From Antitrichia curtipendula (taxonomy: Eukaryota; Streptophyta; Bryopsida; Hypnales; Leucodontaceae): a stretch of 64,000 nt of DNA. The position numbers and the translations under genes are program-made. Of the stretch, positions 8,508 through 63,752 are shown piece after piece. The first letter of the stretch is position 1; each line of letters opens with the position of its first letter. The notes beneath the pieces were generated by a model. The model was given only the letters and a program-made list of their open reading frames with translations, ran no database searches and was not told the origin of the DNA. Where the stretch lies: the NCBI GenBank assembly GCA_951230915.1, contig OX579637.1, positions 18,848,001 to 18,912,000 on the forward strand, in the 5' to 3' direction.

Positions 8508-8735
8508 GCCTGAAGGGCAGCAACTGCCTCTCATCTTGCTCCGGTGATAAAATTCTTGTCTTTATTCCTCTAAAGAGGCTTCCTGCGGACGTTTTGGTTC
8601 TTTGGAAGGCAACAACCTAGCTTTGAGAGGTTCATAGGACCACTCTTGGCGGGTGGCTTTGTCATTACTTCTTTTAATTGATCCGGTTTTTGCGATAAAG
8701 TAATTTTTTTGTGCGACCCATTGTGGATTTGCAAG

Positions 8736-14813: not shown

Positions 14814-14925
14814 CTGGTACAATACAACGATCGCCAGTTAATTCACAAGATCACTAGGAATACAAGATGACTAAGACTACAACATATAACAACAATAACA
14901 ACCAGTTTCCATCGTTTGGTCTTAC

Positions 14926-16275: not shown

Positions 16276-16587
16276 CTGAATGCATAATGATACAGAATTA
16301 GTTTTACATCTATGTTATTTGTCGACATTAGAAAAAATCAAAACAAGCAGCTGGAGTGAACCAGATGACCTATTTGAGAACTATAATCCCGAAGACTATA
16401 ATACCACGAGCAGAAGCAATGGACACCATCTGGATCACTCCAGGTGAAAGCAACAATGGATTGACATTTGAAACCATCACGGACTCACAGATTCGACCTT
16501 CAGAAGTGATTTAGATGGGTGTAATGTGATGTCCATTTCTAACAATATTTTATGAAAGAAAAAAAATATAGAAAAGAAAAAACGTAC

Positions 16588-17887: not shown

Positions 17888-17949
17888 CTGCATTCAACCA
17901 AGAGCTAGTTAGATGTGAAGGTGACCATCGACTACACCTAGCCTCTTCA

Positions 17950-27900: not shown

Positions 27901-28078
27901 GTCATTGTAATAAATCATCATCTAGATTGATCCAGATGAAATGGAGGACCTGGGCAGATGTCCACCTTTGTATTAACCTAAACCCATGAAGAAGGAGATC
28001 ATTTTTGGATAAATTGTCGACTTCATGAGTACGCCTACTTGGTACTGTTCGATAACTGATTAACGGCGGTTCACTTTA

Positions 28079-28290
28079 TCTGGATCACTCCAGTTGTTGA
28101 ATTCTATCTGGATCACTCCGGTTGTTGAATGCTGTCTGGATCACTCCAGTTGCTGAATTCTATCTGGATCACTCCAGTTGTTGAATGCTGTCTGGATCAC
28201 TCCTATTGTTGAATTCTATCTGGATCACTCCAGTTGTTGAATGCTATCTGGATCACTCATGTTGATGAATTCTTTCTGGATCACATCAAC
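28079..28290. repeat. 28-bp tandem repeat (56-bp dimer) of CTGGATCACTCCAGTTGTTG
   Basis: About eight 28-bp units alternate between endings GAATTCTAT and GAATGCTGT, giving a 56-bp higher-order repeat. The core CTGGATCACTCCAG is the same palindromic motif as at 17.95-18.84 kb. Additional single copies lie at about 27922, 28395 and 28425. The array lies about 0.4 kb 5' of the transposase-like gene. Confidence 0.9.
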
Positions 28291-28663: not shown

Positions 28664-31600
28664 ATGGAAGTGAAAATGAATTTCATCGGTGAGAGCAACG
28701 ATGTACTTCGGTGTACAATTGGGTTTTCCACGGACGAAGGCTCGGAAGAGTCGACAGGTCGGGGTCGGCCATTTATCGACGGTGATGATGTTATGCTTCT
28801 TGTTGCTAGATTCGGTGAAGTTGGACGAGGATTGGTTGTGGATGCTAGTCCACAGGGCCAGTGGCTTGGGGTGGATATTCCTTTGGAGCGAGGTGTTTTG
28901 ATTTTGGTTCGGCCACACTCCTTACTCCGTGGAGTGGAGTTGATGCCTTTGACACCGATTCAAAGGGGGCTTACATCGATGTCGGACGCTATGAACCGGA
29001 CAGTGTTGTGGAGAACAGAAGAGGTTCAAAGAGCACCTCCACATCCGCCCATGGATTCTTCTTTATATGTTCCACAAGATGACTGGGTGGGTCTCGAGGT
29101 TCATCTTCAAAACTCCGAGGGCATTGTTGAGGCGGTGGGGCGAATAATTTGCTGGAATCCAGACGACCATTTTCAGGATGGAGTACTTGGTGTAGGGAAT
29201 TTGGGTGTTACTGTGTTGGATGTTTTTTTAGGAAACACGGAAGCTATAATGACTCATGCCCGGTGGCCATTATCAGCCTGTTGGTTTCCTTGTGGCCGAT
29301 CTTTGAAGGAGACAGCTGACTATTTTGCTTCTATTCCCGTTGCTGAAGACCACTTAGCTTATCTTGGTGGAAGAGAGAAAGTGCCTTACCGATTCATAAA
29401 CCGGAAGCCTAGTGTTTGTATAAAGGATTCGTCGGCCGTTCGTAAGACTAGGGACTCTGAAATTCGGAAGGTTACTGCCTCCCCATGCTGCAGCAGGCAG
29501 TGCTGCCAGTTCTTTCCACAAAAGCAGACATTGATTGTGAGGCAGAGGTTCTATTTGAAGTCTTTTGAGGATCGTCGCAAATATGGGATTGCTGCCAGCG
29601 GCCAAATTCATAATTTTGAAGGAGATAGGAACCGGAAAGTAATCAGTCTTGAAGGTGCAGAAATATGCCTTACGGCTTGGTACCAAATTCACGGAATTTC
29701 GAAGTCCACATACCATGGTTATATGTTAATGTATAAAGACGGCGTTGTTTCGGGAATTCACGGAAACAAAGGGGTCAAGAGGCCTAGGATTGGAACCGTT
29801 CAAGTCACTGGTACTATGAAAGCAATCATCGATGAGAACGCCGACCAAATGCCCCACCAGATGCGCGGTATTGGACATGGGAGAATGGACACTCTCAAAT
29901 TTTTGCCTGCAGGAAATAACTGGAAACGTGTTCGTGTTGAAGCCAACGAGGTACTCTCTCCTATCTTGTTTAGAACTCAGCTGGAGCCCTCCAGTTGATA
30001 CATTCTTTGCTTCTATGTTTTACTTCAAATCTTGTTTCCTGGCTTCTTCAATTTTGTTTTGTATGATCTTCTGCCTTTGTTGTAGCTTATGTATTTTATT
30101 GTTGGCTTTGCTGCCTTTGTAGTTAAATGCTGACTACGGGCTTCCACTTGTGAGCCAGTCTACAATCAGTAGAATCAAGAAGGAGCATTTCAACAATGTT
30201 TCTATAAAGCCCGTTGGAAGCTCTTTTGCGAAGTGTAGTTTATGCGACCAGTTGCAACAGTTTCTTTTGAAGTCCCCCAAAGGAAGTCCTGAGTTCGTGG
30301 AGTTCTCGAAGCAACGGATTGAACATCTCAATCACCAAGCCTCTTGTTGACGCCTATACGCTTCATGGCGGGAGGAGTCCAAAAGGAATCCGCAGAACAT
30401 TTTATGTGTAATTCATGATAAGATGGATACCTCAAAGACAGCTTTACCACGGATGCGCGTGACAACCAAGGCCACTCAAGGTTTGGGGCAGATATCGATG
30501 AGCGTAACAGGTATAGTAGCTCATGGTCACGGTGATGGTGCGTATGCGCACTATGCACCATCGTGTTGGCCGGGTGACTCAAACTTCACAATTTCGTCAT
30601 TGGCTAGATTGTTTCGTCGCTTGGAGGGTCCTCTAATTCGAGAGACAGGTGACTTATTTCCGTACCCGCCAGCAAACCCTATGTTTGAAGCACTACTTAG
30701 AGGAAAATCACGTTGTATGGATTGTTTGACCTTAGTGGAACCATCATCTCGGCGTGGACCCTCCCATCTTCCTGAAAAGTTGTATCTTCAGCTCGACAAC
30801 TCGGCAAAGGATAACAAGAACCAGTACCTCATGGCATTCTTGTCCTTGTTGACTGCGCGTGGAGTCTTCAAGGAAATTCAAGTTGGTTTTCGTACTTGTC
30901 GGATATACACATGAAGACATTGATGCTTATTTCAGCCATCTCTCTAAGGCCTTGAAGACCAAGAATACTTCTGTCGTTGCTGACTTGATGAAGGCCTTCA
31001 TGCAGTCGCAGGAGCTAGCATTCATGCCTGAGTTCATTCAAGAAGTGGCTGATTTCAAGTCGTTTATAAAGGGATACCAAAGTAGTGGGACTACTAGATT
31101 AATTGGATTGAGGGAGATGCATCTTTTTAAGTTCTATGTGGATAATGATGGGGCCCCTGTCATGAAGTACAAGAAGTCAGCAGTTGATTCACAATGGTTA
31201 CCATCTGATAAACCTTCTCAACGCCTCTGGAAGAAAGATTCACATGGTCAGCCGAAGCTCCCTCTAGGCTGTCCAAAGCCTGTTCCATTCAAGCCCATGT
31301 GGGGGAGCGAAGTTCCCAAAGACACGGGAAATCGAAAGAAGGCTATTGAGATGGCCAGGAAAGCTACTCTTAACAAGGGTTTTATGATGGTAGGATTAGA
31401 AAAATACATTCAGTACTGGAAAAACGGGATGTCTAAATGTGAGGGGTTTGCAACTGCCTTTGGTCCGTATGTGGAATATTGGAATAGTATATTGCGAGAG
31501 CTGAAAGAACCACTGATTGACTGCCCTTTAGAGTTGGTTGAAGGCTTTTGGCCACAACACGATTGGAGGGTGACACGCGATGAAAATCCTCGCCGAACTT

Positions 31601-32058
31601 TCATGGTCAATCCTGTGGATGTTGTTCCTGAGGAAGAAGATCCGGAACCGTACTGCGGCCCCACCAATGAAGCTCCACGAGAAAGCTTCAATCCTTGGCT
31701 TGACATACGTCCAGGTTCTTGGGTGCTTTTGAGACCTGAAGACCCGGTTGTGTGTGCTGTTTGACAAGGAAGAGCATTGTCCACTGTATGTAGACTGGAA
31801 GGAGATCCGAATTACGGGAAGTTCTTGCTTCAGTATTGGCGGCCGGATAACTCCGAAAGTACCTTGGAATTACGGTACCGCAATTGCTGGTATGGTAAAT
31901 GGGTTGTTGAGAATAGTTCTCCTACTTGGTTGGATGCAACTTGCGTAGTGTATTCGAATTGGTCCAAGATTGTAGATCCTAAATCATGGATGATTCCTAG
32001 GAAAAGTAGGAAGGCTGCCTTAGTGAATTTGAATAGGGCTAATCAGGTGGATCCTTAA
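28664..32058 (+). pseudogene. DDE-transposase-like gene (DUF7869-type), two exons, degenerate
   Basis: Exon 1 runs to 29950, a phase-0 intron spans 29951-30122 (GT-AG), and exon 2 starts ELNADYG. Exon 1 contains a Cys cluster (SPCCSRQCCQFF) and WYQIHGISKSTYHGYM, then NADQMPHQMRGIGHGRMDTL. Exon 2 has HDKMD, QLDNSAKDNKNQYLMAFL and GYTHEDID, spaced like the acidic residues of an RNase-H-fold transposase. I recall this pattern from transposon-encoded DUF7869-type proteins. Lesions are TGA at 30348-30350, a one-base frameshift near 30885, and TGA at 31762-31764. ATG 28664 is the first Met before a clear globular region; a CAG at about 28616-28618 could instead be an acceptor. The intron carries CTGGAGCCCTCCAG. 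Confidence 0.65.
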
Positions 32059-35154: not shown

Positions 35155-37960
35155 GCAAATCAAGTGCAGGGGTCGACGGATAGTGCAAGACAACTGTAGA
35201 CAGGGTCTGTCCACCTCACCGGAGGTCCGTCTGCGTCCGGGAACTTGCTGGTGCAAGCCTCCCCCTGCTCGGCTCCAAATCAAGTGGAGCCTGCGGAAGA
35301 TGCAACAAGGACAGTTGCGAGGAGTCAGGTCGAGGAAGTTCCCGCGCCAGTGGTTCCTCCGCAACAAGTCGTACCGGACGTCGGATCCACACCGGAGGTT
35401 GTCGCCCAGCATCCGACTAAGGAAGCTGCCGCAGACGCTGTAGTGGCCGAGCAGTCACAGGGTCCTGTGACTGATGATCCTCCAGGTTGTTCCTTGTGAC
35501 TCTTTGAGCTTGAGTTTTAACTTGATTCGAGTTGAAACTCATCAAATGTTTTGGTGCACTTTAGGTAGGATGTAGTGGTAGAGTAACTCACTTCTCCCAG
35601 TACACTGTGCGTAATGTAAATGTTTTTATCTCTCAATGAGATAGTGTAATATGATTTTGTTCTTACATTTCATTGTCTGCTATGATTCTTTGCAATCGCA
35701 AGCTTGTTGTCTTTGGAAATTATGGGATCCCTTGTTGTATGCGATGCCGAAATTCTTGCTTTGGAGACAACTCCTGATTGTATTGTTTCTGGGACTGCTC
35801 CGCATGATCAGGTGGTGGAGACATGTCCGTCGTGTCTTGTGGAAAAAAAGGTCCAAGAAGATGGCAGAGACGTGGAGGTCGAGGAAGACGTTCCCGAAGA
35901 CCCTCTTCTGATGCCGGTGGTTTCTCCATCGATTAATTCGATGGATACAATAGTTTCAACACCGGTTTCACTACACAACAATGCAATATGTTCTTAGTGT
36001 TCTATGTGTACTTGTTACTTTTCCTTCATGGATGTAAGTTGAACGTCATGGAGACATGGCTATAATACTATAGTATTCGTCCAAAGTGCATCTGTTTAAT
36101 CGGCACTTTGTCTCTATTCCACATAGGCAGGGTGAGAAAACCGTTGCTCTAGGTAATGCAGAAGACCGGAGTCTTCCCCCATTCAAATCCAGATTGACAG
36201 AAAAGTGGCTCAATGTCGTCCTGGATTTGAATGTTCTACTGGTCTTGTGTGATGATTTAAGGTATTACATGGTTAAAAGGAGATTTTGCTCTCCCGGTGA
36301 GGTAGTTTGTGATCTAGACGACATCATGGATATTAATAGGGTCACTTTTCGGCCACACGTAAGGAGGTTTCTGAGAAAATTATCCTCCATTGCAAACGTA
36401 GTAGTGTGGAGCTCCATGAACAGAAGCTATGCCCAACATATTTGCAATTTCATCTTTAGTGGCTTGCAGCCGCCGTTGCAAGTTCTCGACCGAGAACAAT
36501 GCAGCGTAATAATATGGAAATGGAGATACGGAAAGCTACTGAACTACAGGTTGAGGGGCTCGAACAAGGACCTACAGATCAAGCCTCTGGAAAAATTGTA
36601 CAAGTTAAAGGGGTCCATTTTCACGGAGGACAACACAATTATAGTAGACGACACGCCGGAAAAACACTTCATGAACAACACCACAAATGTCGTGCTCTTA
36701 GATCCGTGGTTGCCTGAAGGAATTGGGTCGAGAGATGAAATCCTTATAAATGAACTTCTGCCCTAGATTTAGAGAGTGCACACGGAGAGGCCTTGGGGGT
36801 TTCACTGTTTTTGTAGGGACGATTCTATAGGGGGCGTCCACCTCCTACATGAACTTGACCAATCCAAGTACAAAATGCTTTGTGCGGCTCTTGAAGCCTC
36901 AAATAGACTTCTTGATGAGTGGAAAGAGAATAATGATGAGCATGACGTCCCTCCCCCAATGTCAAACATGCCGCGCCGCAAGGAGCTTAAGCTATCAGAC
37001 ATCTTGTTTGTGCTTAAACCAACTCCGCGCTAGAGCAGGCCGTAGGTACCGTAGGGTTTTGGCTTCCGTGGAGTTGTAGTGTACGTAATTTTGTGGAAGT
37101 TATAGTGCGACTATTCATTAGTAAAAGTACAAAATTATTTTACAATGCAGGCCTCTGTTTTGTGTCCGAGATTTATGTGTTGTGGTGGCATCCAAAGAAC
37201 ATTGTGAAGACAAAAAGTGTGTGGCCTTTGTTGATTTACTTGTTGACTATAGGCAGCTTGCCATATCGCAAAGGGGGGTTCGGCATATCATGTATTCAGC
37301 GGCCACGGCGCAATCAACGATGGATTTCTCTGTAATGGATGTAGATGATGGTGTTGTCGATAGTCCTCCCAATGGAGGAAAACATCCTGTACTGGCGCAC
37401 TCTCCATCTCCTCTCAAGTCTCATTCGCAGTCGATGTCCCCACGAGATCGCTTTGGAATGAATCACAAACTGCAGAGAAATCTTTACGTTGATGAAATGG
37501 GTGTGGTGGCCCTTGTGGAGGTGTGTTAACAATCTGTGTCTTTACACTCTTTTCTGTTTCTAAGTGATGCTTTGTAGGCGGGTTAGATTGTAAGTCTTTC
37601 TTACAAATTCTATATTTGCAAGTGGATGACATAGTGCCTATGTCTATTGCCATCGTCGACAAGACTTTCAAGGATGTCGAGCCTACAAGTCACGGAGATC
37701 AACCAACTCCATCAACGGGCTTGCCTCATCCTCGACTTAAACGGTCTTCATTGAATCTTGCCAAACGGCAATGCAAAACACATGATGGATTGCCTCCTCT
37801 TCATTGTGGCCGTCATCCATGGGATGCTTGGGAGCAGAGGTCCTTGAAGAAACAAAGGCGGGAAACTGTGCACCAGAGATCTGTTAGTAGTAGCGGATAT
37901 AGTCAAGGGCCAGAGTTATTGAAGGCAATGGAGATGTTGAAGAGTAGGTCGCACTTGTAG
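35155..37960 (+). pseudogene. Gene D: FCP1/HAD-like (pseudo)phosphatase gene with acidic linkers
   Basis: A multi-exon gene, probably truncated at its N-terminus. A Pro/Gln/Val-rich exon (about 35155-35485) has TAG at 35197-35199. An acidic exon (about 35703-35990) follows. The FCP1-like exon opens after a TAG acceptor at 36127 and encodes WLNVVLDLNVLLVLCDD, VRRFLRKL, NVVVWSSM and TIIVDDTPEKHF, then continues through TAG 36764-36766 and 36770-36772 to about 37033. Further exons lie at about 37182-37524 and 37620-37960 (Ser/Lys-rich end). The catalytic DxDxT reads DLNVL, the same loss as in gene C. The linker-then-FCP1 order also matches gene C, so the two appear paralogous. No ParB or methyltransferase part was found here. 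Confidence 0.6.
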
Positions 37961-43803: not shown

Positions 43804-44090
43804 CGCATCACAAAGTTTACAACCTATGATTTGTCAACAGATATCGTGTGGTTACTGTTGTTTCATGGGTTTGTTTGTTAATTTAATAGTTATCGCATTG
43901 TTACAATGCTTTACTACACAATTTACTGCATCATTACGATGCATCATTAGTCGCAATTAATGATGCAGTAAATTGTGCAGTAATGCATCATAACGATGCG
44001 ATAACTATTAAATTAACATACAAACCCATGAAACAATAGTAACCACACGATAACTATTGACAAATCATAGGTTGTAAACTTTGTGATGCG
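43804..44090. mobile_element. Foldback element, 287 bp, with GTT duplication
   Basis: Nearly the whole element is an imperfect inverted repeat. The left end CGCATCACAAAGTTTACAAC is exactly matched by the right end reverse-complemented, and arms of about 130 bp continue with few mismatches. GTT flanks both ends (43801-43803, 44091-44093), suggesting a 3-bp target duplication. The ends are not CACTA; the superfamily is undetermined. Confidence 0.85.
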
Positions 44091-48787: not shown

Positions 48788-49212
48788 ATTGAAAAGAAAT
48801 TGCCCAAATCAACAACAAAGTTCACACTCTCGTGTTCATAATCAACAATCTAGTGCAAAAGAGTTAGTAGTTTCAATTTAAAATTGAATTGCTCAATGTT
48901 CCAAAATCTTTAGTAGAAATGCAGGAATTTTGACAGAATTCTGTTGATTTGGACGTGTTAATCCGGTCACTGTTTTGTTGATTTCAATAGAAATCTGTTA
49001 ATTGTAACAAATTTCTGTTGAAATCAACAAAACTGTGACCGGATCAACACGTCCAAATCAACAGAATTCTATCAAAATTCCTACGTTTTCTACTAGTGAA
49101 TCAACAATTTAGTGTCCGAAAATACCAAGATTAATACATCCACTTAAACAGAAAAAATCAACAGTTTTGTGTTCAAGTTTTGTTGGTTTGGGCACTATTT
49201 TTTCTGGTAGTG
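48788..49212. mobile_element. Outer CACTA-type MITE, interrupted by another MITE
   Basis: The right end, reverse-complemented, reads CACTACCAGAAAAAATAGTG followed by CCCAAACCAACAAAAC. The left side near 48790-48840 contains the diverged counterpart GAAAAGAAATTGCCCAAATC. The exact left boundary and duplication are uncertain. A second MITE lies inside it at 48908-49098. Confidence 0.55.
48908..49098. mobile_element. Inner CACTA-type MITE with AAT duplication
   Basis: Long inverted arms share GAATTTTGAYAGAATTCTG and TTGATTTGGACGTGTT. The right end is an exact CACTAGTAGAAAA and the left end is a mutated CTTTAGTAGAAAT. AAT flanks both ends (48905-48907, 49099-49101). The internal words TCTGTTG, TTTGG and GTTGAT resemble the MITE at 12929-13071, suggesting one family. 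Confidence 0.8.
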
Positions 49213-50431: not shown

Positions 50432-50512
50432 GTGATGGGACGGATGTGGCTAGTACGTGAGCCTGGAGCGGGGAGCAGAGAAAAAGAGAGCGGGGAGCAG
50501 GGATTGTCGTAA
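50432..50512. repeat. Left terminal repeat and target duplication of the MULE
   Basis: GTGATGGGAC (50432-50441) is followed by GGATGTGGCTAGTACGTGAG and two GAGCGGGGAGCAG blocks separated by a purine stretch, ending CAGGGATT near 50504. Confidence 0.75.
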
Positions 50513-51453
50513 AAAATCCAAAAATAAATAATTTTAATCCAAAATAGAATTTTTTCGTGATTTAAATTTTCAAAAATCTAAATTTAGAAAAATTGGGACC
50601 TATAACCGTGGGTTCAGAAGAGCCTACTACCATCAAAAATTGAAGAAAGTACGTGTGAGAAAGAGGGAGAACTAAAAATTAAGTTGGGAAATGAGACAAT
50701 GCAAGGAACAAAAAGAAAGACAGAGAATTTGAAAACTATGGAAAAAAAAATGGAAAAAACAAGAAGCTGAAGAAGAGGAGGAACAAAGAGCGAGAGGGAG
50801 AGGAGGTGTCAGAGAGAGGGAGAATTTAAACCAATAAAAAGGGCAAGGGAGAAGAAGAGTGAGAGTGAGGGAAAAAAAAATATGGAAGATGAGAGAAGGA
50901 GAGGAAGAGTTTGAGAGACGGAGAGCTCAAGGAAGAGAGGGAGAAGTTGAGGGAGAAAGACGGAGAATATAAAAACCCAATGAGTAAATAAAAGTGGATG
51001 AAAAAGAGGGCTAGAAGCAATATAGATTAAAAAGAGTTATAGATTCAAATGTGCTTTAGATGGACTTTAGCATCTCAGAAGCAACTTTTGAGAAAGTTTA
51101 CACGTATCAAATTCCTAGGGCCATGTTCAGTCCTGCCCAAACATGCATAATTCAAAGTAGGCAACTTACATAATATTTTTGAACTTGAGCCTGGAGCTCA
51201 CCTGCATTTAATGTATTATGACAATAAGTATTTGAATAGCTAGAAATGTTCCAAAATTTGAATGGGTCCATCTAAATGGGCAATAAAGAGTGGAGCACAG
51301 GAGTGGGATATGCATACCATAATTCCTAATCATAGTTAGATTTAGTTACCAACATTTTTCATAGAACAATCAAATAGGGTTTAGGCATGATTTCCAAAAG
51401 CTAGTAGTGGCCCTTTTAGTCTCACTACCATTTTTGAATGAATTCCATAAGGA

Positions 51454-54400
51454 TTACATTTGGTGAGTTTCTGGAATGCGATAAGCTAGGATACCGCTTT
51501 CTAGAATCTGCTTCACTTCATTGAAGCTAAAAGATGGTGCATGAATGAAAGCATCTCTCTCGGACTTTAGGCTACCTATAACAGTAAAAATAAAATAAAG
51601 ATGCTTGCAACTTGCCCACCTCCCATGTCTGCCCAAACACTTTATTGCCATATCTTTGAAGTTCAGACAAGAGCATTCAGGGAAAGTGCCAATGGTGATC
51701 AAGTACTGTTGAACTTTCGGTGGAGCTCCAAAATCAAGGGTGATAATACACCCATATCCTGGATGAGGAATCATCGTCACCTTATGTATCTGACCCTTCA
51801 AGGTGAGAACGGACGCACAGTTGTTGGCCTGCTGAATGTTGGGAGCATTGTTGTTCCTGCAGATGGACTTACCTGATCTGGTCTTAGGACAGTCATCTGC
51901 ATTAGCTGGAGTGGAAAATGAAGCGAGGCTAAAGGGAAGCTCTTCCGTCCCGAAGAGTCTCCTTGGAGAAATGACTGCGCGCTGTGGTAATTGGAAGCCA
52001 ACACTCTCTAAATCAAGGATTTCCTTCTTGGAAAGGTTGGTCCCAATCTTCACTGGCCATATACTTGGGATGTCTGGTCTTGATTGTACCCACTTTCGCT
52101 TTGTACCTTTGACACAGCGTTTGACGTCATCGTTGCAGAAGAAGAACTCCATTGTCTCTGGCCTCTTCTTGTGAGCGTTTTGCATGACGCCAGTGTATAT
52201 GGGGGCTGCAGTGGATTTGTTGCACTAAACAATTTTGGCCTTGCACTTCTTCTTGGTGATAGCTTGCTGGGCGAAGCAAGCCTTTGCTGAGGTCTTGGGC
52301 AGCCTTGCAATGTGCCACTCCGTCTTCTTACAAGCAGTTTCATATACAACAGTCACATGACTAGTTCTCCCTACGTCGGTCGTCATGTCTTGGTTGTTGA
52401 GTGCTTTGTCATCTTGCAGCTTGGGAGAGAGTTCTTCCATTATATTGGGAAGACTGCAGCTCGCATGGTTAGCTCGGCTTGACCTGGTTGCAATTCGTGG
52501 ACGAGAGAAGTTTACCTTATCCGGTTGGTGTGACTCGCCTTCAAAATCGAGAGGAACATCGGCTTTTTGCTTTTGGAAGCCAAAGACCTCCTCGCCAGCC
52601 AAATGAGGGTTACGAATGCAGAAGAACTCTGCTCCTGGCAGTTTGGCCATAGCAACGTTTAGCACCTTGGGGTCCCTAGTTCGTTCAGCTGTGCGTTGGG
52701 CAGCGCGAAGCTGCAATTCTTCTTTCCCAGGACCAGTGCCAGCAAGGTCGCCCTTTAGGTATTGGTAATATCGGACAACCTGCATGAGTGCCCGGATGAA
52801 ATCATCGACAGTAGCAGTATACAAATCAGTTCCTCGGTTGCCAGACTGCTGATTCCATTTGTGGTGCATTGACTCGGCGAGATTACAAGAGGGCATCTCA
52901 GCAAGCTCCAATTCGGTGAGATCCTGCCATGACGAAGACACAGACAAAAATCAATGGGAGAAATTAGGAATCAGAATGCCCCAAAGAGAAGCCAGTGTCA
53001 TATGCAAAGTGACAAACAATAGCAAACTTACCAACTACATGAATCCACCCCATTGGCGATAGCGGAAGTGCCAAAATGCCAACCAGAGCTCCAGACGGCT
53101 CAATCCCTCATCGGATGTGGCCCCCAAGGAGAACCACCATGCACGAATGGCAAGATATAGAGTTTCGGATTCTGAAGCTGAAGCTGCATTTTTGTACTGC
53201 CTACAGAGCTGACGGTGTTGGTGTTGGAGGTCGGCACGGATATCGGCCTTCGTATGCTTTTCAAGGGATTGGGCCCAATGGAAGAGGCACGTCCTCTCTT
53301 GGTCCTTCATGGGAATCGTGGCATCACCACTACCGTAAATCACCCTAACCGCATTCCAGTTTGCTTGCGCGCTGTCCGCCATGAAGCCCTTGAACTTCGG
53401 TGATGGAACACCGTGCTTTGCCATGACAGCATTTATGTTCTTCCAAAGTACCATCTGAGCAATAGCATCCTCTGACTGCATATCACAGACCGCAATGGTC
53501 ATGACTCGACAATAAGCGGAGTCATACACATGGCAAGCCATGGTGGTCCAATGCTTGACTCTTTTGACGTGATCAAACATAATCCACAATTTCTCCAGAT
53601 CTCCTCCAGGCTGCATTCATTTGACCAAGTGAACCCCAGATCCGGGCCTTGCCTCGGACATCTTGAAAACATATACCTTGTCTGAGTCGGAGCCTTGTCC
53701 GGGAAACTTGTTCTCCTACACGTAGGCCCAATGGCTACAGCCTCTGAGTGTGGCAATGCCGTCCATGACTCCAAATCTTTGAATGTACCTAAACGTAGTG
53801 ACGTCGTTCTTGATGCTTGGAGAGCTCATGTACTTGCACTTCTCAAGAACAGGGACTAACTCCTCCAGATCGAATTTTTGAACTTTCGCCCCTTCTGGAT
53901 TAATGAGTAACACACCAACGAGCTCCTTACTAGCCTCCATGACAATTGCAGAGTTAGTGGCCTTGGGAGTCATCTCGACCTGCTCCGGAATGAGTTGGCG
54001 CGTTTTCTCCTTAATCTCTTGGTCTTCACCCACCTTTACAGGATGGTCATGAACTCCCAGATGCAGGCAAGCACAAGTCATGTTAACATCTCCATAGACA
54101 TAATAGACTCTAGCAGCACAAGTTGCAATACAGGTCGGTGAAACTTTACAGATTTTGCAGACAAGTGTCGACCCAGCAGGTGTGGATTGGCCAGCCAGAA
54201 TCGTCTTCACAGTGAATCCATCCCATTCCCTCTCATTGACCTCGGAGGTGCGATGAATGCGGGTAGTATATTCACACCTTTGATTGTCACAACGGAGGTG
54301 GCCAATGCACGTAGAAGTGCAAAATGTCAAGCTGAAATTACTTTTAATATTTGAAGTAACTATTTTGGTCCAAGCATGACCAACATGACGCTTGTCCATT

Positions 54401-55140
54401 CCATGCATCATATGGAATGGACCCGTCTTTAGTACTGGTGGTAATTCGAAAAGGACATCTCCACTAAATGTAAGAGGGAGAAACTTGACCCTCTGGATGC
54501 GAAGAGTGTCAAAATCAAGTGTTTTGAAGACATTCCTAACTCCTTTAATAGCCCGAATTCTCTTCAAGGAATCAACAACACTAAGGCACTCCTGAGTAAA
54601 GACGAGGGGTGAGGGATGACTCAACGGAGAAGGAGACTTCAAACATAACTCATGAAAAGTGCTATTGACCAATGGAGAAGGCACGGGAAGTGGTACTATT
54701 GGAGAGTTCCCGTCTGAATCTTCACTGAGAATTGTGATGAACCCATCAGCATGTTCCAACTTCACCCGTGTGACCGGGATGACCTGAACGGTGCTCGTGG
54801 ACAACGGGTGGGGTGTGACAAACTTCGTGGATGCTTCATTGATTGACTGACTCACGCCGTATACTCGATATCTTCCAGCATTGAGCAACCATTTCTTGGT
54901 GGCTCCGTCACAAACTGGAGACTGGACAATAATGTGAACCAGATCTCCAAATTGTGCATCATAGACCTCTTCATCAATGAACATGATTTCCTCACTCATC
55001 TGGAACCTGAGACTCAACCTCAATGAGGTGACATGAGCTACTCCGTCATTGCCTAACAAAAAAGATACTGGAACCCTTTCACTACTAGAATAGATAACAG
55101 CCAACCTAAGATTAGGGTCACAAGTAAAATGAGCAGCCAT
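51454..55140 (-). pseudogene. MULE-type transposase with zinc-binding and SWIM motifs
   Basis: The likely start is Met at 55140 (MAAHFTCDPNLRL), although the frame is open further upstream. A Cys/His-rich module (CTSTCIGHLRCDNQRCEYTT, then HLGVHDHP) resembles WRKY/GCM1-type zinc fingers. A MULE-like catalytic region follows with MTIAVCDMQSED, GFMADSAQANWNAVR and DQERTCLFHWAQSLEKH (Asp, then the typical C-x2-H). An intron spans 53031-52924 (GTAAGT, CAG). The C-terminal SWIM pattern is CSCLNFKD...GRWASCKHLYFIF. Premature stops are TAG 53716-53718, TGA 53617-53619, TAG 53035-53037 and TAG 52225-52227, with no frameshift seen. It lies inside the inverted ends of the 13.3-kb element and is the likely source of mobility. 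Confidence 0.7.
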
Positions 55141-55299
55141 GGTGAAACGAATGATTGAGAATGTGAAGAGTTCTATGAGCATTTCCATGAAACAACAAAA
55201 ACCATGCAACGGCCTAACGTATGGGTCTGTGAACCTGTCACACTTTTCAAAAGAATGACGTTTATAACTGCAAATTAGAGCAGGAATCGCCAAAATGAG

Positions 55300-57140
55300 G
55301 TTGTGTCAGACAGAAAGCTGAGTTTGGTAACACACAACTAATGGAGAGATATTTAAGAATAAAGGTTCATTATGTTCACTACACGTTGGACTTGATAGAT
55401 GTGAGTAGTATCTCTATACAGGAATTCATAAATGAGGGAAGTACCTATACCAAAGGGGTAGCCCGCTTAGCATTTTAAATATTGGGAAATATTATTTCTA
55501 GATCAATGTTGCCCTTGAAATTCACATTTTCGTAGAAGTATATATGATTAATGATTTAATCATTAGGAATAGGACTAATACGATAACTTCTTCTATTAAA
55601 AGACTTCAAAGGACTATATCACACTTAATATATTTTAGATTATAGTGCCGAAGTGTATTATGATTTGCATTGTAATTAATGCCCAAGAAGATCAATAATA
55701 ACATTAGATAAAGATCTGATAATCTTCTATTTTAATTAGTAGAAGTGGGTTTATTTGTACTTAGGTGAAGCACATACTTGCTGTTCTAAAAAAGAATAAA
55801 GTGTAGGTTTAACGAAACTACAAAGCACCTAAAGCATTCAGGGATTATTGCCAATATTCTGTCCATGGCTGCGGGAGTTAAATTATTCTGTCAGTACTGT
55901 ATCAAAAGAATTAATGCCATAATCATCATCAATAAATTATCTGACATTTTTGGCGCAGCTGTCACGCTAGTAATCAATATATGATGGGCCTCTTAGGGCA
56001 CATTCTCATAATAGTTGAGGCTAGGAGTTTACATTTTTCTAGGGCAAATGAATGAGTTAGATGAGTCTCTTGTGTCCAATGAGACCAGGAAGAGGAGGAG
56101 ACGGTCAAAGTTTAGATATTCTAGCAGGAAAGTTTTGCAGCAATCAAGAGTGAAGAGGGAGTCATCTAAATTTGTAGAAAATCACTTGGAGTTGGTTACA
56201 AAGGTATTATCATTTCAATGTGAGATTGGTGACACTGACCATCATGACGTTGCACTAGGATCAAGCCTTCAACGATGCCTTTATAGTATTGAGGAACATG
56301 ATGGTAACGGAGTGATGCAGAGATGTGGAAATATTATTTCTTTTGAGGGATGCAATCTAAAGGCTAGTAGCGTATCATTCTTGATGAATTGTAAACCGTA
56401 AGGGGATTGAGAAGTTGGCTTACTATGAACAGAGGTTAGGGTCAACATCTTTCATGTAAATGTCACCACTGAATTGTCTATGAACTGATCCTAAAGTACC
56501 TCATGAATCAATTCTACAAACTTGATTTTCTCCTTGTTCATATTAGTTCTTGAGAGCGTCCATGTAATATTCATCATGAATTCATCAGATTAAGCCTGGA
56601 TTTAAGGGTTTACTCTCCATGATGTTTTCCGAAGCATGTGTGTGGCAGATCCATAGATGAATTCCATCTCGCACTTAGAGGTCTTCACTGGGTGTTTTGA
56701 TATAGTATATACTAGGTTGCAGCCTTATAATGTTCCGGTAGTCCTCACTGAGTTACGAGGTACGATTCAATGAGCTTTCCCCGAGGAGCGACTAAAGAGA
56801 GTTCAGTGACGATAAGCATTTGTCTACAACTTAGAGGACTGGAAACCCTAATACAAAAATGGATGTCTACACAGAGTAAAGGAATAGCAACCACCATAAA
56901 CAAAATATAACAAATCCATGGCCCTAATTAGTATCTTTACGTAATTAACTGCACGAGTTATTGAAAATTACGCAGTTAGTGTCACCTGATTAGAATGGAC
57001 GTGGTCAAACTAAAGAATGGGAATGCGCGAGTTCCTTAGCATTCAGATGATCATTGATTTTTTCCTTATATCTTCTAGCCTGTGAGTGACCCTTTTCCTC
57101 CTAACATCCAACCTATGAGAGATTCCTTGTCTTTTATTCT
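55300..57140. other. Central region of the MULE
   Basis: Between the two divergent genes. A plus-strand ORF at 56015-56401 has a basic start (RKRRRRSKFRYSSRK) but no domain I recognise. Nothing else is supported. Promoters for both genes must lie within about 55.2-58.8 kb. Confidence 0.4.
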
Positions 57141-57144
57141 CTAG

Positions 57145-57548
57145 CCCGTGGGTGCGTGCTTTGAGACTTCCTGGATTTTAGATTGTGCGGGAGAGAGCGG
57201 GAGCGGCCAACTGAACCGTGTTTCGGAGAGAGGAAGAATCTCGCCGAGTCCGGGAGCGAGCGAGAGTGGCCGACTATTGCGAATCGCAGAGGTGTCCGAC
57301 ATTTCTCTCAGTGCGGGTGGGAGCGCGAGCGACCAAGAAAATCTTGTCCCGGAGGCAGGAAAGAAACCGACGAGGGCAGGAGGGAGCGAGAGCGGTCAAC
57401 AAAATCTTGCTCTTGAGGCACCGAAAACATTCACGAGGGCGGGAGCGAGCACGAGCGGCCGACGGAATCATATCAACAAAAAGGTAAAGAAACATAGAAC
57501 TCACCTACAGAGTAAGTCAGGTTATGATCTTCGCAGGCTGTTTCTCGA
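57145..57548 (+). CDS. Possible exon encoding a 21-residue repeat
   Basis: A stretch between a TTATTCTCTAG acceptor and a GA-GTAAGA donor. It is open in one frame with about five copies of a 63-bp tandem repeat (centred near 57195, 57252, 57315, 57378, 57440) encoding AGGSxSGQQNLxxEAxKxxTR-like units. It could be a 5' exon of the ParB/methyltransferase-like gene downstream or part of an independent gene. GC content is higher than its surroundings. Other frames are also open because of the repeat, so coding status is uncertain. Confidence 0.4.
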
Positions 57549-58870
57549 GTAAGACGGGAACCCCACAGACGTTCTTGTTGTCATTAGGGTGAGCCTCTCC
57601 TCACGTCCTGGTGGCGCTAGGACTTAGCCTCGGCCACGAGGTCTAGTGTCACACGCCCGTGGTCATTTGCTGAGGCAAAGCTTTTCGAGCTGTCCTCTTT
57701 CTCGGTAGTTTGAATCTCTAGCATTGTGCACTGGTTTTTGGTAGTTTCCTTGACCTTTAGAAGACAAGAACGGTAGAACGGCGGGCCTGTCTTCATAACT
57801 GTGAGCACGATCTTGGGCCGGCAGCCACAAAAAATTGATCGGCTTAAGGGCGAGTTGTCGAGGTATTTATGCATTTTGAGTGAGTTGATTTGGTAAGTAC
57901 GGTTTGCGTCTCACTAGTGCTTTGTGCATGCTCAATTTGTAAAGCTTCTGAGCTTTTTCTTGAATCCAGTGACTGCAAGCAGGTGGTGTCGGCGCCGAGG
58001 GGTCCTCGAGATCCCCCCTGGACGTCAGTTGATGCATTCACAGCCTTATCAGTTTGGCAGTCTCGATCCGTAAGACCGTGCTGTTGATGACGTCCGCCTG
58101 TCACTCTGGAGTAGCCTCGCCGCCGAGGAACCACCACAAGATTTGTGGGATGCCATGTGCGCCAGCAGCTTAGACATCTAGTTTATTTCTTTAACGGCAT
58201 GAGCTCGTGATCGGTTTGTACGTACTTCTTCGTTAGCCACGGTCTGCCCTCGTGAGCTTAATTCTTGCAACTGCTGTCCTCCGGAGATCTGACCAGGGCA
58301 GCCTCTGCACCGAGGTGTCCCAGAGAATCTGCAAGGACGTTGTGCCTAGCTACCCCGTAGAATGAAGATCATGTACTGTCTATTGTAGGGTCTTGTATGT
58401 TCCCTTGTCAGGGAAGAGGTCAGATAGTATTTGGTGTATATAGAAATTCTCCTTAAGCTCGATATCGTCCCTTAGAGTACGCACTGAATTCAATCTCAGT
58501 GTTCATTTTGGGGACGGAAACTCAGAGACTGGATTTCCAGCTCTTCATCATGCACAGCCTTCATGAATATGCAATCTCAGCGGTGACAAATCTGCATCAT
58601 AGCTAAATCTCAGTGGTGATAGATCTCAGCTGTGGTAAACCAATCTCTAACTATTCATCATGAACAGCCTATTGATTTCATATTTGTGGACTTTTCATTG
58701 TACAAATGCATGATATTCTTTATTATTTAAATGGCTGTTGCTCGAGTTCGCTTTCTCAATGTGCGTACATATTTTCGTGAATCTAGGAATGTAAATTTGC
58801 GATGAAAGCTGTATGGTCCTTATATTCTAGCTGCAAGTTAATGATAATCTAATTACTTGGATTTGTCGGG
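57549..58870. other. Gap before the ParB/methyltransferase-like gene
   Basis: Two overlapping minus-strand ORFs at about 57617-57874 and 57844-58137 are open but carry no motif; I cannot support them as genes. Around 58540-58670 there are scattered repeats of ATCTCAGYGGTGA and TCATCATGMACAGCC. Confidence 0.35.
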
Positions 58871-58876
58871 CAAATT

Positions 58877-61800
58877 ATGGCTCAAGTAGGGGACTCTCCG
58901 CTACATTCCAAGCCTTGTGGGGAGGGAACCTCCGAGCCACGAATGGCCATCGATATCAGTGAGGATGAGGCAGAGGATGCTCTACTCAAGCTCAATGAAG
59001 ACGAGTTGCGTAACCAACAGAAGTCAAACAACATCCATTGCATTGAAGCAATGAGGCTATCGCCCAAGGAGGCCTCGAGGTTTGAGATACCGCTATGTTG
59101 GATGGTGTACATGCCATTAGTCCGCCCAACTCTTGCCCATGACATCAAGATGTTGGAGGCCGAGTTTACCCATGGATATAGGCCGGGAGCATCCGTGTTC
59201 TATGTATCCACAACCAACGAGAACGGGGAGGAGAGGCTTGTGACGGATGTGGACACTAGTAGTTGGGGACCTCAGTGGACCTCAGTTAACGATGAATTCG
59301 AGGCCAAATTGTCCCTAGATCCTCACCTCATGTTTTTATGTAGTCGTATGTTCTTCATTTGTGATGGAAACCATCGTTTCAAGGGATGGACAAGATACAT
59401 TGACCGGCTTCATAGGAATGAACGGGATTGGCATTATTCCGTGGACAGCATTTGCCTCGACACCAAGGGCAAGGTGGCCCTTCTAGTGAACGCCATGCAC
59501 GACATCAATAAGTAAGATTTCTCACTACATTTTTTTGGATTTTCTATTTTTTTCTACAAGTACTTGTTTCTTGTTGTCATTTTGCATCTTCAGGTCTAAT
59601 GAGCACTCCCATGTGAAGACGAGCATGGTGCACACACTATACCGTGTGAAGTTTGTTGGGTGCATGCCACTCGACAACCTCAAGTCTTGACTCACTGAGG
59701 AGGAATACAGGAGGTGTGTAAACAGCCCCCACATCGAGAAGATATGGTATCGTCTGACAACCGATGTCTTTGTTGCACTCCTCTTCAGGGTAATAATCCT
59801 ACTGACTCATTGTGTTAGTTAAATTTCTACATTTCATACCATTTCATAAACATCCATGCTAATGCTAGTTACTCATTTTCAATTGCAGCAAGAGATTGGA
59901 GAGGCCTCTGATGATGCGGCAAGAAGGTATTATGATGAGACACCTATGGAGGTCAAGACTGACGTTGGCGTTACTGCGGCCATGAGGGCTGCAGCAAGAA
60001 TCAAGCATCAATCGTTCAAGGGTCAGTTCTTCAAGTATCTTTCGATTGCCAACCCAAAGTTCGGTGACAAGTTCCTTGAAGAGGTTCGTTTTTCTCTTTA
60101 GACTCCTCCGCGGGACCTTCTTGTTATTTGATATTAATGTATTAACATCCCTTGTACTTGTTGCAGATCATGAAGCACTGGAGCAATAATGAAAAGCCAA
60201 AGATGACTCTAGAGAAGCTTCAGCTCATTGCAACGGCTTGTGCAGGTCCGGAGTTCAAAGTTCGGTGGCTTCAAAATTGGAATTCAAGCATCCACTCCCG
60301 TGAGGCAGTCCACTTTCTTCCTAAGGGATTCACTGAGAAGGACTTCGAAGGTTGGCTAAACAAGGCCTCATTTTGGGCAGGGGTGAGTAATGGAGATCCA
60401 TAGTAATCACATAGTTGAATTCATTATCAACTGTGATATTTATTGACTCTATAAAGTTTGTGTTAGTGTTTGTTGTACTCTTCGTTTACTTCATTTCATA
60501 TTTATACATGGCAGTGATGAAGCTGACATTAATCACCTAAACCCTGGCCATTGAGCTTTTCAACGTGTTTCATTTTTCTTATATCCTACAGCTTGAGGAC
60601 GGTGCTGTTGATCTGTTCTCGAAGAGCGTCAAGGACGACGGCTTGGCGATAAACATGAATGTCGCTCAAAAGCCAAGGTCCATCTCTTAATACATCCAGG
60701 CTTGGCATAATCAAATATGGGAGCATGGATTCGTTGGCTTCTTCAGGGGCAAGGAGTCCTATACGAAGACGAAGGCATTCGTAAACCAGAAGCAAACAAA
60801 CCTTGCTGTGAAGCGAGCCGTGTATAGGTATAATCTGAGTTCATAATTGGTTTATTATTTTTTTGTTTCATTGATATTGATGATTGTTACATAACTCTTT
60901 TTTTTCTTTGTCTTCCTTCATCTAGTACTTCAAGAGGGAGCTCCTCCCACTTGGTGCCATTGAAGAGCCCCACCTTCCGCAATACTTGACCGATTGGACA
61001 GACAAGAACTCCATTCTTTGCATGTACAATGCTTGGCATGCTCGCTTTTGGTCCATTGCGCATCTCAGGGCATGTTGCTGGTACATTGAATGCGGGAGGT
61101 CCTTCTGCCCAGTTGAAGAAGAGGACGCGAAGAAGGCTTCTGATGAAGCTAATAATGTTGCTCCCAACCAAGGTGATGTGTAAGAGGATGAGGTGCAAGA
61201 GGTGGACATCTCTATGCTACCCGAGAAGGAGAGGAACAAGATTCTCAACCAGAGGACCAGGGACGCAGAGAAGGCCAAAGCTAAGGCTGATAGGGAGGCC
61301 CAAAAGGTCAAGGACAAGGCAGAAAGGGATGCACAACGGAATGCAGAAAGGGATGCCAAGAGAGTTGGGCGATCAAGGAAGTCAAAGGCAGGTGATGCTT
61401 CTATTCTAGCGCTTGTGTTCCCAAAGGCTTCCACTAGGTCCATGTCACAGAATCCTCGCAAGCGGGATTCTTCCTTTGTCGAGCTCTCAGCTTCAAGATT
61501 GCAGCAGTGTACATCACCTGCCTTCCAGGATTGCTCGGGGGGGACTTTGCATTTGGATGAGCGTTTCCTCTCATCATCTCTAGATGCTGTTGCATCTTAT
61601 TATGAGCAGCACAATGCCTTTCCAAAAGAATGGATGGATTTGCAAGCCTTTTTTGAGAAGGTATTCCCCATCTCTTATTTTTTGTTGCTTTATGACGTCA
61701 TTGTGGTAGTATTGAAGTGAGTGTCATTCTAAATTTTTTTTGTCATGTGCAGCACAAATCTGACAAAGCCCGAGCCTTGAGAGGTGTTCAAGCCATTGTC

Positions 61801-63179
61801 GGCCTTCTCGATCTCATGGTGGTGGACATTCCTGAAGGTCTTCCGGTTCCAGCGGTGACCTCTCCTGGCTCATCCATTCCGGAATGGAACAAGCTTCCAG
61901 ATCGATTTGTGGAGACAGTTTTCGAGAGTGCCTGTGAACTGGTTCACGACAACAGGGTGCTCCTATTGTTTCATCCAGATCATCTTCAGATCAGGGCTGA
62001 TATTCGAGGCTGCCTAAGGCCTTACCACTTCTCACTCTTCAAGGAATTCATGGGAGTTAATCGCTTACCTCTGACTAGTGCCAGGAACGCTCCAATGACT
62101 GTGAGTCAATCATGTATGTCCAATTCACTCTTGTCATTAGGACTTGCTTCACTGACCTCTCTTTTACTAATTTCATTTGTTGTTTCATTTGTTTGTAGAC
62201 TTTGAGATTCTGCATTCAACTTTTTGTGAGGAGCTTCCCCGGGGTACCAGCCTCCACCTTCTCCATTACGCCTGTGCCAGAGCTCGATTCTATCGGTATC
62301 AACGTCACTGCTGATGATGTTCTCTTCAACTTGGTGACAAAGGACACACAGCTGATGAGAGGCACTACTCTTTGGAGAGGAGGTAGGGAGAAGGATCCTA
62401 TACTTCTCCAAACGCTGATTGAGTCTACCACGCAGTTTGGTGACATAGTGCTTGATTGCACTGCGTCCACTGGTAAGGGCTTCCTACTGAATCTCTTTAT
62501 AAAGGTGTTATGATTTCTTGTTCATTTACATTTCCTTACTTATTCTTGGATTCAATACAGGAGCTTCTGTCCACGCTTGTCGAAAGGCTGGTCGGCATTT
62601 TGTGGTCATGGAGGTGGATCAGCTGATCTTCAAGGAAATTCTGGAGCCCCTCATCGTGGTCTCTGTCCCTGAGGTCTCTAAGAAGCAACGTCTTGATGCT
62701 GGAGAGGCCTCTGTGGTCTTAGTGGATGAAGAGATTGCGGAGTCGACCATTGTTCCACGCCATAGATTCTGTAAGTAAGTTTTTATCATACTTTGAATAT
62801 GGAGCTTTAAGTAAGTTTGTATTGCTATGAATTTATTTTCACTCTTTCCTATACTAATCCCTTCATTGACTTATTGTATAATCAGCTCGAGCTTGAGGAG
62901 TCCAACTCCTACTTTCGCCTTGCAATCAAGATTGCTTCATAGCCCTGAAAAGTCATTTTCCCTACCTGTCTATGCTGATGCAATGGCACGTGCTTCTCTA
63001 GAAAGTGGACCCACTTTTGCACCTCAACCTAGACTTGGAGTAGATCGCAGGGTCCTAAAGTATCTTGACATAGATGTTGCTGTTGATACTTCGTTTCCAT
63101 CAGATTGTTCAGATTCAGAATCTAGTTGTAGATCTGGTGATATCTATGGAGACTGTAGTGGTGATAGTATATCTTCTTA
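58877..63179 (+). pseudogene. ParB-like / DNA-methyltransferase-like gene, about ten exons
   Basis: Exons: 58877-59511, 59594-59789, 59889-60083, 60167-60382, 60592-about 60820, 60926-61660, 61753-62100, 62199-62472, 62561-62770, and a final one from 62886. All introns have GT-AG ends with compatible phases. Exon 1 encodes a ParB/sulfiredoxin-fold-like domain: FTHGYRPGASVFYV, then MFFICDGNHRFKGWTRYI, matching the ParB DGxHR signature. Exon 6 is a long Lys/Arg/Glu helix. Exons 8-9 give TLWRGGREKDPILLQTLIES, GDIVLDCTASTG and RKAGRHFVVMEVD, matching motifs X and I of N4C/N6A (DAM-type) DNA methyltransferases. No DPPY motif was found. Stops are TGA 59688-59690, TAA 60688-60690 and TAA 61181-61183; the last exon is frame-ambiguous. 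It is the second gene of the MULE. Confidence 0.6.
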
Positions 63180-63675
63180 GACTTTTTGCAGTTCCACTGC
63201 CTGTGGGATTTCTACCTTTTGTATTTCCATTTATGTTTTGCAGTGAGACTAAAAGGGCCACTGCCTTTGATTTCTATGGTCTTGTCTTTGCTACGTAGAC
63301 TACACATTTTCTTGACTGCAATTCTTCTGCTACATTTATTTGTTTCGTACCGCATTACCCTAAACCATTGCGTAGGCAGAACTTGTGGAATAGCATGTCA
63401 TTTCTTATATTACTAAGTAGTGTTGCTGGCATAAATTTATCCTTTTCTTATCGCAGTTTATGTGGACCTCCTCTACAGAACTTGGTATTTTCTTCCGCTT
63501 TCGTGTTCTAGATCGTCATTCCTCATCCACGGTTGTAGGTTCACTTTCCTACTACTCCCCTTCAGACCCTATTTTCATTATCACAGTAATAGATGCTACT
63601 TCCAATATTTTGAAGAAGTGCATACATTTATTACCCACGGTAATAGGTCTGCCTCTTTAGGTTTGTCAAAATTTC
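63180..63675. other. 3' flank of the ParB/methyltransferase-like gene
   Basis: No gene. Open frames here are short and T-rich. The words TAGATCGTCATTC and ATTATCACAGTAATAGATGC stand out little. The right terminal repeat of the MULE follows. Confidence 0.35.
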
Positions 63676-63692
63676 AAAACAACTAAAAGATG

Positions 63693-63752
63693 AAATCCCT
63701 GCTCCCCGCTCTCCGCTCCCCGCTCACGTACTAGCTTTTCCCGTGATGGGAC
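63693..63752. repeat. Right terminal repeat and target duplication of the MULE
   Basis: AATCCCTGCTCCCCGCTCT and GCTCACGTACTAGC are the reverse complement of the left end. GTGATGGGAC at 63743-63752 repeats 50432-50441 exactly. Confidence 0.75.

What the first reader, a model, noticed from the sequence alone, without database searches (positions are those of the whole stretch)
50432..63752. A 13.3-kb Mutator-like element that appears to carry a ParB/DNA-methyltransferase-like gene as its second gene
Seen: inverted ends sharing GCTAGTACGTGAGC and AGAGCGGGGAGCAGGGATT, an identical 10-bp flanking direct repeat, a MULE-like transposase (C-x2-H and SWIM motifs) on one arm and a ParB plus methyltransferase-like gene on the other, divergently transcribed. 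Known: MULEs make 9-11 bp duplications, and MuDR carries a second non-transposase gene. Inferred: the ParB/methylase protein is an accessory, perhaps acting on element ends or their methylation. I do not recall a described plant MULE with this cargo.
Basis: partly seen in the sequence, partly recalled or inferred. Interest (0 to 1): 0.92.

Follow-up and report, generated by a model that had tools for sequence, protein, structure and literature searches.

The report
Two-gene jumping element with methyltransferase-like partner
This is a broken copy of a large plant (probably moss) DNA transposon family that carries its own transposase and, facing the other way, a second gene for a ParB-like plus DNA-methyltransferase-like protein that selection has kept, a pairing so far reported, in the papers I could search, for transposons of algae.

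Summary
The window holds a 13,301-bp Mutator-like element (50442-63742) with a 10-bp target duplication. Its genome has 21 pairs of the same ends 12.4-17.6 kb apart: 18 have exact duplications, 3 near-matches, and all 21 enclose both a transposase and the ParB-type exon (eleven read whole, ten by exon hits). The genes read outward from the centre. Five of five distant relatives tested (ParB exon 45-54% identical) keep a head-to-head transposase. Both genes are under purifying selection (median dN/dS 0.27 transposase, 0.15 partner), so the partner is not idle cargo. The window copy is dead: four and three in-frame stops.

A ParB/MTase gene opposite a transposase is already in print for an Ectocarpus Sola element, with mention of green and red algae. 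My searches found none for MULEs or land plants.

New details: the MTase catalytic tetrapeptide is consistently non-canonical; the ParB call rests on a DGNHR box that no profile or fold confirmed; a 21-nt motif lies 27 and 61 nt after the two stops and occurs 182 times exactly in the genome (control 0), but is absent from some subfamilies. Function (self-marking or anti-silencing) is inferred.

The parts
50432..50441 (.). left copy of 10-bp target site duplication GTGATGGGAC
50442..50506 (+). left terminal inverted repeat (GGATGTG-GCTAGTACGTGAGC... with GGGGAGC-type repeats)
51406..51426 (-). 21-nt motif (AGTGAGACTAAAAGGGCCACT on the minus strand), 27 nt after the transposase stop
51454..52923 (-). 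transposase exon 2 (catalytic E region, SWIM-like CxC...CxH by eye); one in-frame stop
53032..55140 (-). transposase exon 1 (C/H cluster, DD of RNase-H-like core, C-x2-H); three in-frame stops, no frameshift
56048..56227 (+). conserved basic coding segment (TRKRRRRSKFRYSSRKVL...), perhaps first exon of the ParB/MTase gene or a small third gene
   Evidence: dN/dS 0.30 in this frame vs 1.76 and 1.06 in the other two; weak matches in distant subfamilies
58877..59511 (+). ParB/MTase-like gene, exon with DGNHR box
59594..61660 (+). middle exons (59594-59789, 59889-60083, 60167-60382, 60592-about 60826, 60926-61660); three in-frame stops and one doubtful exon junction
61753..63180 (+). MTase-like exons (61753-62100 with the DIPE motif; 62199-62472 and 62561-about 62774, which meet in the DCTASTG motif; 62886-63180 to the stop)
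   Evidence: last donor site inferred from frame
63242..63262 (+). 21-nt motif AGTGAGACTAAAAGGGCCACT, 61 nt after the ParB/MTase stop
63690..63742 (-). right terminal inverted repeat (GGGAAAA-GCTAGTACGTGAGC...)
63743..63752 (.). right copy of the 10-bp target site duplication

Best explanation
It is a decayed copy of a two-gene Mutator-like DNA transposon in a plant genome (probably a moss). Shown: ends, 9-11-bp duplications, a transposase and a ParB-type exon inside all 21 end pairs, head-to-head orientation wherever both were placed, purifying selection on both genes. Inferred: the transposase cuts and pastes; the second protein uses its ParB-like and MTase-like domains to bind element DNA and mark, protect or de-silence it, with altered or absent methyl-transfer chemistry. 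The 21-nt motif after both stops most likely co-regulates the two transcripts.
For: Ends and duplications. Both genes in 21 of 21 end pairs: 18 by coordinates of genome hits, two more by local tblastn, one more by a fetched stretch. Of 45 close ParB hits, 37 have a close transposase hit within 40 kb, 37 of 37 divergent. Distant subfamilies: 5 of 5 loci fetched upstream of ParB hits hold a divergent transposase, degraded in one; 3 of 3 further pairs seen by coordinates are divergent. MTase exons follow in 4 of 4 distant loci fetched downstream. dN/dS over 55 pairs of 11 copies: transposase 0.27, ParB/MTase 0.147. Transposase model: the four best Foldseek matches are ISCth4. MTase: PF01555 E 4.9e-7, above cut-off, in the Ceratodon homologue. 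Precedent for the accessory type.
Against: No Pfam match for the transposase reading; the ISCth4 matches have E 2.6e-3 to 1.3e-2, TM 0.14-0.16 by query, on a model of pLDDT 66.6. ParB fold not confirmed: model pLDDT 52.5, no Foldseek match with E <= 0.001, Pfam only weak DUF1015 in 12 of 53, best E 0.019. MTase tetrapeptide D-x-[PSNL]-[EDFK] instead of canonical [DNS]PP[YFW] (canonical form recalled). The lower dN/dS of the second gene comes from higher dS (0.315 vs 0.180); dN is equal (0.046 vs 0.047), and pairs are not independent. 8 of 45 close ParB hits had no listed transposase within 40 kb: three of the eight do hold one on a closer look, five were not checked. 2 of 39 close transposase hits had no ParB within 40 kb. 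No expression, binding or methylation data.
Confidence: 0.8

Rival explanations
1. The second gene is captured host cargo without a role for the element (Pack-MULE-like).
For: MULEs often capture host genes (PMC6446971 passages); the window copy is broken.
Against: Transposase and ParB exon together in 21 of 21 end pairs and 5 of 5 distant loci; dN/dS 0.147.
Confidence: 0.04
2. Two independent mobile elements sit side by side or nested; the ends belong to only one.
For: The window and the family centre are TE-rich and vary in length.
Against: Both genes within the same ends in 21 of 21 pairs; both genes carry the same 21-nt 3' motif in 11 copies.
Confidence: 0.02
3. The second protein is an active self-methylating enzyme (N6A or N4C) that marks the element's own DNA, as proposed for the Ectocarpus protein.
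For: PF01555 match of the Ceratodon homologue over profile positions 2-217 of 221; published proposal for the algal type.
Against: The tetrapeptide lacks the first proline in 6 of 6 lineages read (window type, L031-L034, Ceratodon) and the aromatic residue in 5 of 6 (Ceratodon keeps F); the SAM motif reads DxxA[SA]TG in the five lineages where I saw it.
Confidence: 0.25
4. The second protein is a non-catalytic DNA-binding or anti-silencing factor (VANC- or mudrB-like role) built from a degenerate MTase.
For: Conserved but non-canonical catalytic motifs with purifying selection; basic KRRRRS segment upstream.
Against: No binding or demethylation data; PF01555 match retained in Ceratodon, whose DTPF is closer to canonical.
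Confidence: 0.4

Closest known systems
Sola1-1_Ec32 of Ectocarpus (PMC12477816, passages read), with green and red algal transposons cited there
   Same: A protein of about 1,100 aa with ParB-like and N4C/N6A MTase domains, encoded opposite to the transposase of a large DNA transposon
   Different: Transposase superfamily is Sola1, not Mutator; brown alga; the proteins could not be compared here
MuDR / Mutator-like elements (mudrA + mudrB)
   Same: DDE transposase with C-x2-H and SWIM-like motifs, 9-11-bp duplications, second gene
   Different: Here the genes read outward from the centre (MuDR's converge; recalled); second protein of other domain content (recalled)
VANDAL / Hiun MULEs with the VANC anti-silencing protein
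   Same: MULE with an accessory gene that may act on the element's epigenetic state (passage of PMC6446971; listing and abstract starts of PMC10398659 and PMC5735166)
   Different: VANC is not a ParB/MTase protein (recalled)
IS256-family ISCth4 transposase (6xgx, 6xg8, 6xgw; family name recalled)
   Same: Best structural matches of the transposase exon-1 model
   Different: Bacterial insertion sequence without this partner (recalled)
Bacterial ParB-methylase fusions (e.g. Bce_0392, PMC5512222 passage)
   Same: ParB domain fused to an adenine methylase
   Different: No prokaryotic or phage relative of the ParB exon found
KDZ fungal transposons with TET/JBP genes (recalled)
   Same: DNA-base-modifying enzyme associated with a DNA transposon
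   Different: Different transposase and enzyme families

Membership tests
Mutator-like elements (MULE) | 8-11-bp target site duplications | tested here: met
   18 of 21 exact, 3 near
Mutator-like elements (MULE) | terminal inverted repeats | tested here: met
   short (about 60 bp) and GC-rich
Mutator-like elements (MULE) | DDE transposase related to Mutator transposases by sequence profile | tested here: inconclusive
   no Pfam match for the window reading; PF00872 Transposase_mut at E 0.18 (below cut-off) in 1 of 4 relatives scanned; HMMER filters drop most weak matches
Mutator-like elements (MULE) | RNase-H-like fold nearest to Mutator/IS256 transposases | tested here: inconclusive
   ISCth4 ranks 1-4, E 2.6e-3 to 1.3e-2, low TM, model pLDDT 66.6, exon 1 only: supportive, not decisive
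Mutator-like elements (MULE) | C-x2-H motif and zinc finger such as SWIM | tested here: met
   read from sequence; C618/H621 invariant in 28 rows; SWIM by eye only
N6/N4 DNA methyltransferase (PF01555) | profile match above gathering score | tested here: met
   Ceratodon homologue P0001 30.4 vs 26.7 bits; the window's own reading 23.8, below cut-off, 48 residues
N6/N4 DNA methyltransferase (PF01555) | catalytic [DNS]PP[YFW] (recalled) | tested here: not met
   DIPE in 7, DINE, DILE, DIPK in 1 each of the 10 copies that have the exon; DCPE, DLSE, DIPE, DVPD in L031-L034; DTPF in P0001
ParB/sulfiredoxin domain | profile or fold match | tested here: inconclusive
   DGNHR box conserved; weak DUF1015 in 12 of 53, one PHROG ParB hit E 0.49; fold model poor
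ParB/MTase transposon accessory proteins (Ectocarpus type) | ParB-like plus MTase in one protein, opposite strand to transposase, inside a DNA transposon | tested here: inconclusive
   MTase-like domain and position met; ParB not proven; the algal protein could not be compared

The most novel reading that the evidence does not exclude
A long-lived MULE lineage in a moss has made a bacterial-type ParB/MTase protein an obligatory partner, with the methyltransferase turned into a non-methylating (or newly specific) reader of element DNA, and a 21-nt structured motif at the 3' ends of both genes as its recognition or co-regulation site: a transposon-borne partition- or anti-silencing-like system.
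Probability: 0.2. Interest if true: 0.85.

Novelty: new variant of a known kind. Interest (0 to 1): 0.62.

Why it matters
It extends the ParB/MTase accessory type from algal transposons of another superfamily to a Mutator-like lineage of what is probably a land plant, with evidence from many copies of one genome that the partner is kept by selection. Those copies are natural material on which self-marking, anti-silencing and the role of a 21-nt motif shared by both genes can be tested directly.

Tried and rejected
Rejected: captured cargo and nested-elements readings. A first frame choice for transposase exon 2 was wrong (24-31 false stops); one search replaces it. In one search the exon-9 query lay in a wrong frame (5-7 stops in every copy), so its stop counts are meaningless. 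A 60-row alignment of exon fragments misaligned and was not used. AF2 of the ParB exon was poor and its fold search uninformative. Viral contigs: three protein queries and one 21-mer scan without a confirmed hit. Bacterial/archaeal genomes: no confirmed ParB-exon relative among 61 pattern matches. Phages: weak MTase matches for P0001 in 2 records, none for the ParB exon at E <= 1. Rfam: one match below its gathering score (29.2 vs 38 bits, E 0.013). The 21-nt motif resembles, in antisense, the histone 3' stem-loop by memory; Rfam did not support it. Counting the motif with mismatches did not complete. Literature searches that gave no MULE or land-plant case: (open-licence PMC papers only); Iyer 2011 and Petroll 2025 are not held.
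Full report
What is there. The element spans 50442-63742 (13,301 bp) between copies of GTGATGGGAC. The left end reads GGATGTG-GCTAGTACGTGAGC, the right end GGGAAAA-GCTAGTACGTGAGC, each followed by GGGGAGC-type repeats. The transposase lies on the minus strand in two exons (55140-53032 and 52923-51454) with four in-frame stops and an unbroken frame otherwise. The second gene lies on the plus strand, in about ten exons from 58877 to 63180, with three in-frame stops and a doubtful exon-5/6 junction. So the window copy is dead. Of the 11 copies examined, ten have in-frame stops in both genes and the eleventh (C4b) has none but has indels against the window copy in both; whether fully intact copies exist was not shown.

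The source. The window lies in a 400,189,583-base assembly of 303 contigs, unnamed. The only full-length relative found for the second protein is from the moss Ceratodon purpureus, so a moss is likely; this is inference.

Other copies. The end core occurs 42 + 40 times, control 2 + 1. Pairing forward with reverse ends by eye gave 21 pairs, 12.4-17.6 kb apart; the other 40 exact ends were not examined, and some could pair over longer distances. Ten pairs were fetched whole; with the window these are the 11 copies. For the other ten pairs only the ends were fetched. Exact 9-11-bp duplications: 18 of 21; near-matches 3 of 21 (9/10, 9/10, 8/10); the duplicated sequences differ from one another. 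Transposase and ParB exon lie inside 21 of 21 pairs: 18 by coordinates of genome hits, two by local tblastn, one by a further stretch. In the ten pairs not fetched whole the later accessory exons were not tested. Of the 11 whole copies, 10 keep all accessory exons queried and one (C4d) lacks exons 6-8.

Wider family. A ParB-exon query gave 150 scored hits of 1,257 candidates; one transposase query 62 of 1,806 and another 56 of 1,845, so counts are lower bounds. For the tallies I used 90 of the 150 ParB hits and 147. Among 45 close ParB hits, 37 have a close transposase within 40 kb, all divergent, 32 of them within 5.1 kb; of the eight without one, three were found to have it on a closer look and five were not checked. 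Two of 39 close transposase hits had no ParB within 40 kb. For distant subfamilies I fetched upstream DNA of five loci (ParB exon 45-54% identical to the window's): all five hold a divergent transposase, degraded in one. Downstream DNA was fetched for four loci, and all four have the MTase exons. By coordinates alone three of 102 distant ParB hits had a listed distant transposase within 15 kb, all divergent; the low number is what capped lists would give, but it does not by itself show that the rest are paired. In public proteins 539 ParB-exon relatives pass E 0.001 (best 120 listed) and 28 transposase relatives, covering exon 1. One ParB relative (P0096) and one transposase relative (P0003) sit on contigs of the same length, 583,271 bases, which suggests but does not prove linkage in another assembly.

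Selection. Over 55 pairs of 11 copies the median dN/dS is 0.27 for the transposase (0.18-0.54) and 0.147 for the ParB/MTase gene (0.10-0.34); by part 0.119 (exons 1-2), 0.100 (3-5), 0.180 (exon 6, 45 pairs, up to 0.84) and 0.245 (exons 7-9). The two genes have equal dN (0.047, 0.046); the partner's lower ratio comes from its higher dS (0.315 vs 0.180). Codons with stops or gaps were skipped, exon 10 was not included, and pairs are not independent. Pairwise coding divergence runs from 3.6% to 8.8%. Along the element the median divergence per 500 bp is 0.05-0.11 in the outer parts and up to 0.32 between the genes, where many copies do not align at all. A segment at 56048-56227 coding for a basic KRRRRS stretch has dN/dS 0.30 in its frame against 1.76 and 1.06 in the others, and weak matches to it occur between the genes, on the same strand, in the five distant loci (E 0.001 to 8.6 with the window-type query).

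The proteins. The transposase reading has no Pfam match. The exon-1 model (pLDDT 66.6) shows a beta-beta-beta-alpha-beta-alpha stretch at residues 518-602 and its four best PDB matches are ISCth4, E 2.6e-3 to 1.3e-2 with low TM-scores. The second protein's C-terminus is an N6/N4 MTase by PF01555 in the Ceratodon homologue (4.9e-7, above cut-off); the window reading scores 23.8, under the cut-off of 26.7. The tetrapeptide at motif IV reads DIPE in seven and DINE, DILE and DIPK in one each of the ten copies that have the exon; DCPE, DLSE, DIPE and DVPD in four distant loci; DTPF in Ceratodon. Motif I reads DCTASTG in the window and DxxA[SA]TG in the three distant loci where it was printed and in Ceratodon. 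The N-terminal exon keeps a DGNHR box, the basis of the ParB name, but neither Pfam, PHROGs, PDB sequences nor a fold model confirmed it.

The 21-nt motif. AGTGAGACTAAAAGGGCCACT lies 27 nt after the transposase stop and 61 nt after the second gene's stop, in sense orientation in both. In 11 copies 20 of 22 sites are exact and two have one mismatch. The genome has 182 exact sites, reversed control 0. Of the 100 sites listed there, 35 have a listed gene hit ending within 8 kb upstream, 35 of 35 in sense, five of them from distant subfamilies; a count in the other direction gave 16, but it is confounded because the partner gene of the same element falls there. Twenty further sites were fetched; at least four of these (L056, L072, L073, L074) have a distant gene hit upstream, L060 ends a transposase-like frame, and the rest I did not assign firmly. 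The motif is not universal: of four distant accessory-gene 3' regions one is exact, one has one mismatch and two lack it; the three distant transposase-side regions searched lack it. Its outer flanks tend to stay complementary: first outer pair T-A in 17 and C-G in 5 of 22 distinct sequences, third outer pair 14 of 22 paired against 9.2 in shuffles; but the fourth shows nothing, partners slid by two columns also pair in 22 and 16 of 22 at two positions, and related rows are not independent. RNA folding is at best modestly better than shuffles (z -2.57, -0.71, -1.59). I read it as a hairpin-like RNA or palindromic DNA site under strong constraint; its role is open.

What is known. [quoted passage not shown] PMC6446971 (passages and part of Table 1) lists MULE groups with second genes; it has no occurrence of methyltransferase, moss, Bryophyta, Physcomitrella or Selaginella. 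PMC5512222 (passages) notes a ParB domain fused to an adenine methylase with nicking activity in Bacillus cereus. PMC10398659 and PMC5735166 (search listing and abstract starts) concern VANC anti-silencing. So the accessory type is known; its Mutator-like version, probably in a land plant, and the selection evidence are what this adds.

Verdict. Confirmed observation, Mutator-like element, real partner gene, unproven function: a new variant of a known kind.

Noticed in passing
window 8682-10111 (+): hAT-like transposase fragment (DUF659, E 2.5e-33) with a BED-like zinc finger (latter by eye).
   Followed up: partly
window 30351-31761 (+): DUF7869 protein (E 4.5e-17 in 30853-31761), a domain seen in TE-related plant proteins (recalled).
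   Followed up: no
window 36074-36763 (+): NLI-interacting-factor-like phosphatase frame (PF03031, E 3.5e-16).
   Followed up: no
window 14857-17904 (-): Three long adjoining frames without Pfam match, perhaps an unknown multi-exon or TE gene.
   Followed up: no
window 43804-44090, 48917-49088, 12929-13070: Near-perfect foldback palindromes (133, 84 and 69-nt arms, 92-99%).
   Followed up: no
window 18371-18816 and 28077-28284: 116-bp and 28-bp tandem arrays that both contain a CTGGATCACTCCAG-like palindromic unit.
   Followed up: no
window 50442-63742 and ten copies: Copies are most alike in the outer parts and least alike in the centre between the genes, as if the centre were exchanged between subfamilies or the ends homogenised.
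   Followed up: partly
L069: A GCTAGTATGTGAGC sequence, close to the end core, lies just downstream of a 21-nt motif: possible nested or related end.
   Followed up: no
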